From positions 692,729-756,728 of the forward strand of contig NC_013887.1 of assembly GCF_000025525.1 (NCBI RefSeq): 64,000 nucleotides of DNA. Reading direction: 5' to 3'. The stretch comes from Methanocaldococcus sp. FS406-22 (GTDB lineage: Archaea; AGJL01; Methanococci; Methanococcales; Methanocaldococcaceae). Position numbers and translations under genes: made by a program. Below are positions 5,250 through 9,425 of this stretch, in pieces (the first letter of the stretch is position 1; each line of letters begins with the position of its first letter). The notes beneath the pieces are model-generated. The model was not told the DNA's origin. It saw only the letters and a list, made by a program, of their open reading frames with translations, and did no database searches.

Positions 5250-5342
5250 TATTAATAATTAAATATCGAAAGATATTTATTGTATTAATCTTTAAATCTT
5301 AATATAACCACACACTGCCTCTTTTAAGTAATGGTGTTAAAA

Positions 5343-8300
5343 ATGGAGATGAAATGGTATGTTAAAAGAGGTTTTGAAGATGATTTAATCAATGCTTTAA
5401 ACAATTATGGCTCAGCTTGTATCTTGGGCTTGGCTGGAATGGGTAAAACTACCACTGCAAGATACATTTATACAAAGCTAAGGAGAGAAGGAGTTAAAGT
5501 TGTTTATCTAACATCCGATGAAGAGTCAAAAACCATTAAATTTAAAGTTACAAGAGATGAAGAGGAAGAGATTAGATGCATATCTTTAAAACATGTTTGG
5601 AGTGGGAAAGGAGATGAGGCTGAAGTTTTAGCTTATGCAATAGCTAAGGCAATTGAAGGAACATATCTTGGAAAAATTGGCAGATTATTAGAAAAATTTA
5701 CTGGTAAAAAACTTGAAAAACTTGAACATATTGAAAATATAAAGCTTAAAATAAAATCTTCAAGTGATGAAGCTAAAGAAATTGTAGATAAAATTTATGA
5801 ATGGGTTGAAAGTGTTTTTGGTAAGGAGTTTATTGATACCTTAGGATCTGTTGGGGTTAAATCAAAAATAGAGGAGTTTTTAAAGAATAATGAAAATAGT
5901 GATTTGTTTTATCTTCTTTTAGAGTTGTCTATGCTTATGACTGTTGGAGTGGCTGGCAGTTCTGTTATAAAGTCAGTTAGGGAATTGATGAAAAGAGAAC
6001 CTAAAATTAAAGAGGATGTTGTAATAATAGTGGATGACTTAGCAGACTTTAATGAGTATGAGCTTAAAGAATTTGTTAAGTTTTTGAGAGATAAAGAAAT
6101 TAAGATTTTATTCGTTAAGAGGATTGACGATAGCAGTGATGAAGGATTTAAGAGATATTTAAAGATTGTAAAATTTTTAAGCAATAAACATAAAGGTTTA
6201 GATTTAAATGATGTGCTGTTTAAAGGTGCTAATGACTTTTTTGATGTTGATTTAAGAAAAAGGATTTTTCTAATAGATTCTGCTGAAAAGGAAGAGTTTA
6301 TAAAGCTATTGGAGGCTAATAACTACTCTGCTAAAATAATTGGGGAAAAGCTAAATATGGAGTTTGATGAAGCTTTGGACTTGATATATAGGGCATCTGC
6401 TGGAACTATATGTATAGCTTTGTATATGCTTGAAATGGGATTCTCTGCCGAAGACATGAAAAGAATTGCTGAGGCTGAAAGATATTACTCTTGGTCTGAG
6501 ATTGCAAAATATGAAGATGAAGATGAGAAAAGAAAGATGATTGAGTCTAATAAAATGTTGAGATTTAGTGGGCTTTATGAGATTTATGAAAAATTGATTG
6601 AGAAGAATCCATGCTATATAGCTTTGATAATTAATGATTTGGCTGAAGATGAGCTTAAAATGTTTTGTGAGGATGAAAGAATTAAAAGTAGATTTAGTGG
6701 TAAGGCTAGTCCCCGTAAGGGCGAATATTATTGGATGTTAGAGGATTATGAAGAAGAATTGATAAAAGATGGGAATCATACTAAGAGGAAAGTTTATAGG
6801 GTAAAAAACCATTGGAAGAAATTTAATGTTTTTATAGATGCATTATGTGATTTTCATGAAAATGGAGAGGAAATAGAAGAAGATTTAAAGATTATAAGGG
6901 AAGTTTTATTGGATATTTTAGATAAAGAATATGAAGAATTGGGAGAATTTACAGACAGAATGATATTATTTAGTTTAGATAACATAAAGTGGTTATTTGG
7001 TAAAGGGATTATAAAACCAAAATCTGCGTTTATATGGTGTGGATCGGCCTTAGCTTATTTACCAAGAGTCGTATTAGAATTTTTACAAATTGTAATGGAT
7101 ATGTGGGAAGAAAATAAGAATGAAATGACTAAAGATAGAGAAACTTTACTTCATACTTTAAGGTTTGCAAGGACTTTAGCAGAATTTGGTAGAAATTTAT
7201 TTGAAAATGAAAATTATCATAAAGAAATCTTTAAGAAAGTTATCAAATTTTTAGATATTAAGGGAGATGATGTCATTTCTTTATGGAAAGTTTGGATATA
7301 TTCCAGTTTAGCATATGGTTTAAAATTGAACAATTTTATAGAAGATGGAGATTGGTGTATAAAACAAGCTGAAAATATTTTAAAGGATATTAATAATAGT
7401 GATTTAAAGATATTGGCAGAAATAAAATTTTTGATGACAAAAGCTCGAATTGAAATTTATGAAATTGGAACTTATAATAGGAGAGTCGTTAATATAGATA
7501 CTATCAATATGTTAAATAATGTGTTAAGCAATCTTATTGATACATTAGATAATTTAACATTTAAAGAAAGTATGGATGAGATTTTTAGACCTTTTGGAGG
7601 TCATGCTGAGGAAATATTTAGACATTTAGTAAATGTGTGGAAAGGAGATATTTATTATTATTTAGCTCGTGCAAACCTTTATTTAAACTTAGAAGAATCT
7701 GAAAAGTTTTTCAGAAAATGTGTCAAACTTTCAGAGACTCTTACTAATGAATTAATTGCTCTTAATTTTATTGGAAAAATAAACGTCCTAAAGTCTTACA
7801 GTTTTGATTTTATTATTGAAAATAAAACATGTAATTTTGAAAAACTCTGGAATTTATGTAAAAAGTATGAAGTTAAAATTAATAACGAAACTCTTGCACG
7901 CACATGTGCTAGATATCTTATATTCACTATATTAACAAAGAATTTGACAATAACGATAAAAAAAGACCTTTACGATTATTTATATTTAGATAATACAGCT
8001 AAAACATTATTTTATGGACTAAGCTGGATTTTAGGATATAAACTTAAAGATTTAAAGGAAATTATAGAGATGTTAAGAGATTATGATTTGAGCATGTTTC
8101 CAAGTGTTAATAATATTAATAAAAATAAAATTGAAGTTGAAGAAATGTATAACAGTTTTTTAAATGGGAATAAAGAAGATTACAACGAATATAAAAAGCT
8201 TGCTTGGAATAAAATTGTTGAATTTACTCAATCTTTAGTAAGAATTATGTTTTTTTACATTATTAATGATTTAAAAACTGCAAAGAATTTAGCAGAGGTG

Positions 8301-8456
8301 GTAAGTTCAGAGTATCCAAAAGTCCCAAGTGAGCTTTTTAAAGAACTAAGTAAAGCAATAGAAGAAGAAATTAATGCTAAATCATGTAGTGAGAAAGAGA
8401 TAGCCAAAGAAAAAGTTAAAAAAGCATTTGTAAAGTTGTTTTATTTTGCAGTATAA
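5343..8456 (+). CDS. Large STAND-like P-loop NTPase with long helical C-terminal region
   Basis: 1037 residues. I chose the ATG at 5343, six bases after GGTG; an ATG at 5331 would add four residues. Walker A is GLAGMGKT (29-36) and Walker B is VVIIVDDLAD near residue 226. An FVKR segment follows, where a sensor arginine is expected. The rest, about 450-1037, is helix-rich with loosely TPR-like pairs, for example around YYYLARANLYLNLEESEKFF. There is no signal peptide; one hydrophobic stretch lies near residue 200. The architecture, an NTPase core plus a large superhelical tail, is that of STAND regulators, many of which act in defence or signalling. I see no recognisable effector domain. Function unknown. 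Confidence 0.65.
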   Translation: MEMKWYVKRGFEDDLINALNNYGSACILGLAGMGKTTTARYIYTKLRREGVKVVYLTSDEESKTIKFKVTRDEEEEIRCISLKHVWSGKGDEAEVLAYAIAKAIEGTYLGKIGRLLEKFTGKKLEKLEHIENIKLKIKSSSDEAKEIVDKIYEWVESVFGKEFIDTLGSVGVKSKIEEFLKNNENSDLFYLLLELSMLMTVGVAGSSVIKSVRELMKREPKIKEDVVIIVDDLADFNEYELKEFVKFLRDKEIKILFVKRIDDSSDEGFKRYLKIVKFLSNKHKGLDLNDVLFKGANDFFDVDLRKRIFLIDSAEKEEFIKLLEANNYSAKIIGEKLNMEFDEALDLIYRASAGTICIALYMLEMGFSAEDMKRIAEAERYYSWSEIAKYEDEDEKRKMIESNKMLRFSGLYEIYEKLIEKNPCYIALIINDLAEDELKMFCEDERIKSRFSGKASPRKGEYYWMLEDYEEELIKDGNHTKRKVYRVKNHWKKFNVFIDALCDFHENGEEIEEDLKIIREVLLDILDKEYEELGEFTDRMILFSLDNIKWLFGKGIIKPKSAFIWCGSALAYLPRVVLEFLQIVMDMWEENKNEMTKDRETLLHTLRFARTLAEFGRNLFENENYHKEIFKKVIKFLDIKGDDVISLWKVWIYSSLAYGLKLNNFIEDGDWCIKQAENILKDINNSDLKILAEIKFLMTKARIEIYEIGTYNRRVVNIDTINMLNNVLSNLIDTLDNLTFKESMDEIFRPFGGHAEEIFRHLVNVWKGDIYYYLARANLYLNLEESEKFFRKCVKLSETLTNELIALNFIGKINVLKSYSFDFIIENKTCNFEKLWNLCKKYEVKINNETLARTCARYLIFTILTKNLTITIKKDLYDYLYLDNTAKTLFYGLSWILGYKLKDLKEIIEMLRDYDLSMFPSVNNINKNKIEVEEMYNSFLNGNKEDYNEYKKLAWNKIVEFTQSLVRIMFFYIINDLKTAKNLAEVVSSEYPKVPSELFKELSKAIEEEINAKSCSEKEIAKEKVKKAFVKLFYFAV

Positions 8457-8532
8457 ATGTTTATATACCAAATGCCGTTTTAAACTGTTTAGTTTTTTGT
8501 GAGTATTTGTGAGTGTATGGGAGTATTGAGTT

Positions 8533-8552
8533 TTCGAAATGTTTATATATTA
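8533..8552 (+). promoter_or_regulatory. Strong archaeal promoter (BRE + TATA) before structured GC island
   Basis: CGAAA at 8535-8539 is followed by TTTATATAT at 8542-8550. This is the BRE/TATA spacing typical of stable-RNA promoters in Methanococcales. No open reading frame of useful length follows on this strand; instead a GC-rich, self-complementary region begins about 40 bases downstream. Confidence 0.6.
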
Positions 8553-8569
8553 TTTTTACGCGTAGTTTA

Positions 8570-8760
8570 TAGTGTCAATCTAATTAACCCCAAGCCACCC
8601 TAAACCTCTTTTAAAAATATTAAAGCAGCCAACTAATTGTCAAATTGATGGGTGGAGCTGGGATCCCCACGACAGGGGCAGAGGTTTCTATTAAGAGGCT
8701 GATGACGCCCAAGTCCAATGTGAGGCATTTACTCACCAACGCTCACATTGGACAGACCCC
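8570..8760 (+). ncRNA. Candidate structured non-coding RNA (GC-rich island)
   Basis: In this AT-rich genome the stretch 8585-8760 is strikingly GC-rich and rich in complementary segments: CCACCC 8595-8600 with GGGTGG 8650-8655; AAACCTCT 8602-8609 with AGAGGTTT 8680-8687, which crosses the first pair as a pseudoknot; CCCC 8665-8668 with GGGG 8675-8678; and a perfect 12-bp helix, 8713-8724 with 8742-8753. CTGATGA at 8699-8705 resembles a kink-turn or box C strand. A BRE/TATA promoter stands at the right distance upstream. GC islands in AT-rich hyperthermophiles often mark stable RNAs. It matches neither tRNA, SRP RNA, RNase P RNA nor the fluoride riboswitch as I know them. The 3' end overlaps the end of the converging gene. 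Confidence 0.5.
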
Positions 8761-9425
8761 TTTATAAAATTCAATATCTCTTCTTTATTTAGAATAATTG
8801 GATAACCAACAACTATATCATTATTATCTTTAATTCTTTTTAAAACTTCTCTATCCTCTAAAGACAATATAAAATCTCTCCAATTTCCTTTATAATTCCT
8901 CCTTCTATTTAAATAACCCTTCATAGATTTCAACACATTCTCATCAATCTTTGTAGCAAATGGGACATATACAGCTTTCTTTGAGTTTATATTGCATTTC
9001 TGCCCATATAAATAATAAGATATAAGGTTGTATTCCTCAATAATATCTTTAACTAAACTCTCTACTCCTTCAGTCCCCACCCAAACATCTTTGCCATACC
9101 CAATAGCCTCTCTAACAACATCTAAAATTCTATTGTTGCTGAATCTTCTCTCCCTATCACTTAAATATTGCTTATTTCCTAAAACAACACACAAATCAAA
9201 ATCATAAGATGCATAAAGCTCTAACAATTTAAAAGCATCTTCTTTCTTAGCTTGAACTGTCATAACAACCTTAGATATCTTTTCTAACCCTTCTAAAATA
9301 TCTTCATCAACTATAGCTACATTTTCAGCATCTATAATGTAATAATCAAAATACTTCTCAACAAACCTTCCAAACTCTACAATATCCTCATCTATTTTGC
9401 TTGGCTTTATGGCAATGGCTAACAT
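8733..9425 (-). CDS. Uncharacterised protein (MJ1239-type), divergent from proS
   Basis: 230 residues from the ATG at 9425, which is preceded by GGTGAGTTTT; the frame stays open to 9464 without a better site. It begins MLAIAIKPSKIDED and alternates hydrophobic strands (VVMTVQAK, LCVVLGN, VWVGTEG, IVVGYPIIL) with helices, which suggests an alpha/beta barrel-like protein. A distant relation to luciferase-like proteins is possible but not shown. The last codons and stop lie inside the 12-bp inverted repeat of the candidate RNA on the other strand. It is divergently arranged with proS. Confidence 0.6.
   Translation of the reverse strand: MLAIAIKPSKIDEDIVEFGRFVEKYFDYYIIDAENVAIVDEDILEGLEKISKVVMTVQAKKEDAFKLLELYASYDFDLCVVLGNKQYLSDRERRFSNNRILDVVREAIGYGKDVWVGTEGVESLVKDIIEEYNLISYYLYGQKCNINSKKAVYVPFATKIDENVLKSMKGYLNRRRNYKGNWRDFILSLEDREVLKRIKDNNDIVVGYPIILNKEEILNFIKGSVQCERW

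What the first reader, a model, noticed from the sequence alone, without database searches (positions are those of the whole stretch)
8531..8760. Promoter-headed GC-rich island with crossing stems: candidate non-coding RNA
Seen: a BRE/TATA promoter (8535-8550) with no downstream frame, then a GC-rich stretch. CCACCC 8595-8600 matches GGGTGG 8650-8655, while AAACCTCT 8602-8609 matches AGAGGTTT 8680-8687 (alternatively CCTCTT 8605-8610 with AAGAGG 8693-8698). The order a-b-a'-b' is that of a pseudoknot, and the two partners for one strand suggest a switch. A perfect 12-bp hairpin (8713-8753) ends the region and overlaps the last codons of the converging gene. Established: GC islands in AT-rich hyperthermophiles mark stable RNAs. 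I could not match it to a known class.
Basis: partly seen in the sequence, partly recalled or inferred. Interest (0 to 1): 0.68.

Follow-up and report, generated by a model that had tools for sequence, protein, structure and literature searches.

The report
Mini-transposon carrying a TnpB guide RNA
The GC-rich island is a 286-base mini-transposon of a hyperthermophilic methanogen that carries no protein gene but has its own promoter and the structured guide-RNA region of the RNA-guided protein TnpB, so a guide RNA rather than a gene appears to be what it carries.

Summary
Window 8475-8760 is a 286-bp mobile element, one of three ~92% copies in this genome. Two empty sites prove the insertion: removing the element, keeping one CC, restores LNFIKAFGI* to the converging gene (a relative has LNFVRCFSV*) and an open ankyrin frame at a sister copy. 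Its ends match tnpB elements and tnpA+tnpB IS607 elements. The GC-rich part is the tnpB 3' end plus right end, the omegaRNA/reRNA position. In 24 distinct elements a pseudoknot, a stem and the terminal hairpin pair in 98.4% of cells, 12 of 21 pairs with two-sided changes, 0/500 shuffles. Similar mini-elements carry a TATA box at the same offset; one genome has about 27 tnpB-less copies. The family's TnpBs have Gln for the third RuvC Asp, so RNA-guided binding may have replaced cutting. Rfam gave no match. Transcription was not tested.

The parts
8475..8760 (+). Whole mini-element (286 bp), CC target core kept at the left (8475-8476), host resumes at 8761; base 8474 is the usual G before the core
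   Evidence: Ends shared with 2 sister copies and many relatives; two empty sites
8498..8513 (+). Two TGTGAG repeats 10 bp apart in the left end (8498-8503, 8508-8513), candidate TnpA sites
   Evidence: Sequence; IS607 ends carry short phased direct repeats (PMC6188088); function inferred
8535..8551 (+). BRE/TATA promoter CGAAATGTTTATATATT; start site expected near 8570 (inferred)
   Evidence: Only perfect match in 64 kb; TATA at offset 67-69 in other mini-element types
8586..8630 (-).
   Evidence: Matches tnpB genes in the opposite orientation to 8667-8722
8645..8720 (+). 3' end of tnpB (remnant), overlapping the RNA scaffold
   Evidence: 80-83% identity to full tnpB genes L018, L019; same encoded words
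8660..8665 (+). Pseudoknot 5' strand GGGATC (sister copies GGGGTC), pairs with 8755-8760; one mismatch in this copy
   Evidence: Two-sided changes C-G / U-A across 24 elements
8676..8679 (+). Stem P1, 5' side GGGC (3' side GCCC 8707-8710)
   Evidence: Two-sided changes at 2 of 4 pairs
8684..8699 (+). Apical hairpin GTTTC-tattaa-GAGGC
   Evidence: GTTTC/GAAAC, GTCTC/GAGAC, ATTTC/GAAAT in relatives
8707..8710 (+). Stem P1, 3' side
8713..8753 (+). Right-end hairpin, 12 bp
   Evidence: 8 of 11 tested pairs have two-sided changes; may also act as DNA
8755..8760 (+). Pseudoknot 3' strand GACCCC, ending in the right CC core
8761..8780 (+). Predicted guide (host DNA just past the right end)
   Evidence: Inferred from IS607 reRNA architecture (PMC10711439); no other exact match of the CC-plus-guide 20-mer in the genome
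8733..8760 (-). Element-encoded last codons of the converging DUF7388 gene (GSVQCERW and stop), replacing AFGI and stop
   Evidence: Empty site in G007

Best explanation
Window 8475-8760 is a miniature, non-autonomous derivative of the IS607-type tnpB elements of Methanocaldococcus and relatives. Shown: it is a mobile 286-bp unit that inserted without scar at a CC dinucleotide, and it keeps the left end, the right end and the tnpB-3'/right-end region, whose pseudoknotted RNA structure is conserved through compensatory changes. Inferred: an archaeal promoter inside the left end (8535-8551) drives an RNA from about 8570 through the right end into host DNA; this is an omegaRNA (reRNA) scaffold whose guide is the flanking host sequence from 8761. 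The serine transposase TnpA (plasmid copy) moves the element in trans, and TnpB (two solo chromosomal genes and the plasmid copy) binds the RNA in trans. The RNP would recognise the vacated insertion site (..GCC followed by the guide match) and so favour retention of the element. Because the TnpBs of this family have Gln at the third RuvC position, recognition by binding (TldR-like) rather than cutting is a serious possibility. I put the identity at about 0.95, a transcribed TnpB-binding RNA at about 0.7, and targeting of its own empty site in trans at about 0.4.
For: Three copies at 92%; two empty sites; shared ends with tnpB and tnpA+tnpB elements; TnpB and TnpA family hits; covariation with shuffle and slide controls; promoter and conserved TATA offset; RNA-model hits in 16 of 36 genomes of the order; noncoding mini-elements keep the structure.
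Against: No transcript data. The window copy has one pseudoknot mismatch and lacks a 5' hairpin kept by other mini-elements. The right-end hairpin and the ends could be conserved for transposase binding alone. Part of the region is coding in full tnpB genes, so codon constraint contributes. TnpB may be catalytically dead, which weakens the homing version.
Confidence: 0.7

Rival explanations
1. A plain deletion derivative (MITE/PATE): its ends are kept because TnpA needs them, and the RNA-like structure is a passive remnant of tnpB without present function.
For: Window copy lacks the 5' hairpin domain and has a pseudoknot mismatch; PATEs of Haloquadratum arise by core deletion of IS605-type elements, one keeping a tnpB C-terminal part (PMC3119063); copies within one genome are too similar to show selection.
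Against: The scaffold is kept, about 110 nt from the right end, in mini-elements of several makes and genomes with compensatory changes; several makes also keep a BRE/TATA promoter at one offset. An IS607 transposase footprint at the right end is about 20 bp (PMC6188088).
Confidence: 0.25
2. Independent host non-coding RNA with a pseudoknot switch.
For: The words exist and cross.
Against: Stem a is broken in both sister copies; the arms lie in an inverted tnpB fragment; such crossing occurs in 2% of shuffles; the orthologous site in G007 has no such sequence.
Confidence: 0.02
3. A transcription terminator or UTR structure shared by the two converging genes.
For: It lies between convergent genes and has a strong hairpin.
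Against: Copies stand at unrelated places, one inside an ankyrin-repeat frame; the G007 site lacks it.
Confidence: 0.02

Closest known systems
IS607-family TnpB reRNAs (ISXfa1, PMC10711439; ISFba1 with RAGATH-18 RNA, PMC11061315)
   Same: Serine TnpA plus TnpB; dinucleotide target core, no duplication; RNA runs to the right end, whose fixed flanking base belongs to the scaffold; pseudoknots; scaffold of similar length (187 nt in ISFba1)
   Different: No Rfam match; core is CC and not GG in the tnpB orientation; scaffold overlaps the tnpB 3' end; TnpB has D to Q in RuvC-III; here the RNA sits on elements without any protein gene
Archaeal sotRNAs / omegaRNAs of IS200/IS605 (Halobacterium; PMC12558985; Rfam RF02656, RF02657)
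   Same: Archaeal RNA overlapping the tnpB 3' end
   Different: IS200/IS605 (Y1 TnpA) elements of haloarchaea; no match to those Rfam families here
PATEs of Haloquadratum (PMC3119063)
   Same: Transposase-free derivatives of tnpB elements with near-terminal palindromes and no terminal inverted repeats; outnumber full elements
   Different: IS605-derived; not described there as RNA-coding; here IS607-type with promoter and scaffold
TldR, nuclease-dead TnpB regulators (PMC13418256)
   Same: TnpB homologue with an altered RuvC triad and a conserved guide RNA
   Different: TldRs are domesticated with fixed targets; here the family is still transposon-borne, partly next to tnpA

Membership tests
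IS607 family (non-autonomous member) | Ends shared with elements encoding a serine TnpA | tested here: met
   Left end (G)CC..AAACTGTT and right end hairpin plus ACCCC shared with tnpA+tnpB elements on the plasmid and in G024; similarity is short at the far left
IS607 family (non-autonomous member) | Insertion at a dinucleotide core, no longer target duplication | tested here: met
   Two empty sites with one CC kept
IS607 family (non-autonomous member) | Mobilised in trans by TnpA | not testable with these tools
   An IS607 TnpA is present on the plasmid; movement not tested
TnpB omegaRNA / reRNA | Position: tnpB 3' end to the right end of the element | tested here: met
TnpB omegaRNA / reRNA | Conserved, structured scaffold with pseudoknot | tested here: met
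TnpB omegaRNA / reRNA | Transcribed, bound by TnpB, guides it to DNA | not testable with these tools
   Promoter only
RAGATH-18 / sotRNA Rfam families | Covariance-model match | tested here: not met
   No Rfam match at gathering score; only chance-level hits to other families at E up to 10
RNA-guided TnpB nuclease (the trans partner) | RuvC D-E-D triad | tested here: not met
   First D and E present, third D is Q in the family

The most novel reading that the evidence does not exclude
Transposons reduced to a promoter plus a guide RNA: in Methanocaldococcus and relatives, dozens of IS607 derivatives of about 260-303 bp each transcribe a TnpB guide RNA programmed by their own insertion site, and serve a TnpB clade that has lost a RuvC catalytic residue yet is kept by selection. 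The system would mark or block vacated sites by RNA-guided binding and not by cutting.
Probability: 0.25. Interest if true: 0.82.

Novelty: new variant of a known kind. Interest (0 to 1): 0.58.

Why it matters
It gives an identity and a tested structure to a GC-rich island that Rfam does not match, defines an omegaRNA family for methanogen IS607 elements, and shows mobile elements whose conserved content is a guide-RNA scaffold with a promoter. The TnpB family with Gln for the third RuvC Asp raises a testable question: what selection keeps TnpB and its RNA in mobile elements if cutting is lost?

Tried and rejected
Rfam at gathering and permissive thresholds and tRNA search: nothing relevant. 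A riboswitch-like motif (GGCTGATGACGCC suggested the fluoride class to me from memory): dropped, no Rfam match. C/D or H/ACA guide RNA (UGAUGA): dropped, the motif is the internal loop above P1 and part of the tnpB coding sequence. Mobilisation by the genome's only Y1 (IS200) transposase, L056: dropped, its element has different ends. An outer stem GGGT (8650-8653) with ACCC, preferred by energy: weaker than the pseudoknot, since GGGAGG variants break it. The crossing stems and the switch: rejected (see rivals). The phylum-wide search returned only the 36 genomes of the order, so I could not see whether TnpB relatives outside it keep the RuvC-III Asp.

Full report
What is there.

It is a repeat. 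Searching the DNA in 41 genomes gave two more full copies at 92% identity in the same genome and many partial copies in relatives. Alignment gives sharp ends, CCGTTTTAAACTGTTTAG on the left and TTGGACAGACCCC on the right; the window copy and its two sisters are 286 bp. Two empty sites settle that it is an insertion. In G007 the same neighbours stand without it. Removing the window element and keeping one CC turns the converging gene's end from LNFIKGSVQCERW* into LNFIKAFGI*, matching the relative's LNFVRCFSV* in length. At a sister copy (L016) the same operation restores an open ankyrin-repeat frame (..VKLLIENGADLNVRNRLSRTPLMTAIEMKHVEIAKLLIESGADVNI..).

What family. The GC-rich part is the 3' end of tnpB: full genes of 428 and 414 aa stand elsewhere in the genome and match guided_TnpB (NF040570) above its cut-off, with Pfam OrfB_IS605 and Cas12f1-like_TNB domains. 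Related tnpB genes sit directly behind a serine TnpA of the IS607 family on this genome's plasmid and four times in G024, with the same kind of left and right end. The only Y1 transposase in the genome belongs to an element with different ends. So this is a non-autonomous IS607-type element.

Window 8586-8630 is an inverted fragment of tnpB: its minus strand reads GCFNIFKRGLG. CCACCC/GGGTGG are two opposite copies of one tnpB stretch. The sister copies carry TTTTCC in place of CCACCC, so that stem is not conserved, and such a crossing pair occurs in 2% of shuffles.

The real RNA structure. I cut 24 distinct elements (tnpB-bearing and mini) at conserved anchors and tested a structure: a pseudoknot between GGGGT[C/T] (8660-8665) and [G/A]ACCCC (8755-8760), stem P1 (8676-8679 with 8707-8710) and the right-end hairpin. 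98.4% of cells pair; 12 of 21 pairs show changes on both sides; no shuffle of 500 reaches any of the five measures; sliding the partners drops pairing to 32-55%. The structure was read from these same sequences, which flatters the paired percentage but does not by itself create two-sided changes. The pseudoknot evidence rests mainly on one pair that differs between the mini and the tnpB lineages, so it may be few events. The apical stem 8684-8688/8695-8699 also covaries: GUUUC/GAAAC, GUCUC/GAGAC, AUUUC/GAAAU. In L095 and L101 an inserted hairpin lies in this part of tnpB, and by my reading its frame stops before the apical stem in L095, yet the arms persist. A further 5' hairpin in the zinc-finger coding part covaries too (ACCTGTC/GACAGGT, ACCTGCC/GGCAGGT, GATGCCT/AGGCATC) and is kept by other mini-elements, but the window copy was not among the matches. 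The window copy also has one pseudoknot mismatch (GGGATC). It may therefore be a reduced or ageing copy.

Distribution. A covariance model finds the window copy at 124 bits and matches in 16 of 36 genomes of the order. G024 has about 40 full-length matches; by coordinates about 27 are mini-elements, against 11 tnpB matches. Mini-elements of three makes (about 260, 286 and 303 bp) carry a TATA box at offset 67-69 from the left end, mostly in a CGAAA..TTTATATA context.

How it probably works. [quoted passage not shown] Here the CC core closes the pseudoknot and the guide would start at 8761. An RNA started near 8570 would be a scaffold of about 190 nt; the ISFba1 scaffold has 187 nt (PMC11061315). 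TnpA and TnpB would have to act in trans. Transcription, TnpB binding and targeting are inferred, not shown.

A twist. Aligned with ISDra2 TnpB, the RuvC-III Asp (DRDENAALNI) is Gln in this family (NRQLVGCFNI). The family members whose motif was read all have Q, whereas TnpBs of other families in the same genomes have D. TnpB is still under purifying selection, dN/dS 0.11-0.24 over four genes (several dS values are near saturation). So the family may bind without cutting, as TldRs do (PMC13418256), or may use another residue. I could not decide.

Verdict. It is a new variant of a known kind: an IS607 mini-element whose conserved content is a TnpB guide-RNA scaffold with its own promoter.

Noticed in passing
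L018 1403-2689 (-), L019 1498-2742 (-), L096 1492-2802 (+) and relatives: The IS607-type TnpBs of this order have Gln in place of the third RuvC Asp (NRQLVGCFNI / DRQFVGCFNV) although dN/dS is 0.11-0.24; other TnpB families in the same genomes keep Asp.
   Followed up: partly
L047, L049, L160, L162, L163, L002 and tnpB zinc-finger coding regions: A second, 5' hairpin with compensatory changes (CTGTCCT/AGGACAG, GCCCC/GGGGC, ATGCCTC/GAGGCAT) is shared by tnpB coding sequence and noncoding mini-elements; the window copy lacks it.
   Followed up: partly
L003, L005, L037, L095, L101 and the G024 mini-elements: An inserted pair of hairpins (TCTCGGAGCGAAGCGACGAGA and TAAAAACCGTTAGGTTTTTA) sits in the same place of the scaffold in many copies; some tnpB copies carry more small hairpins with GAA loops (GGAAGCGAAGCTTCC) near the 3' end.
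   Followed up: no
L016, about 1479-1766 (G000:C1:689478-), 3 kb upstream of the window: A sister element interrupts an ankyrin-repeat frame; removing it restores the frame.
   Followed up: yes
window 5331-8456 (+): 1041-aa protein with an N-terminal nSTAND3-type NTPase match, possibly a STAND defence protein, directly upstream of the element.
   Followed up: no
G001:C1:863004-863115 (L124); G006: RNA-model hits in genomes with no tnpB match (G001) or only a tnpB full of stops (G006) and no IS607 TnpA found: possible orphan guide RNAs, though G006 is an incomplete assembly.
   Followed up: no
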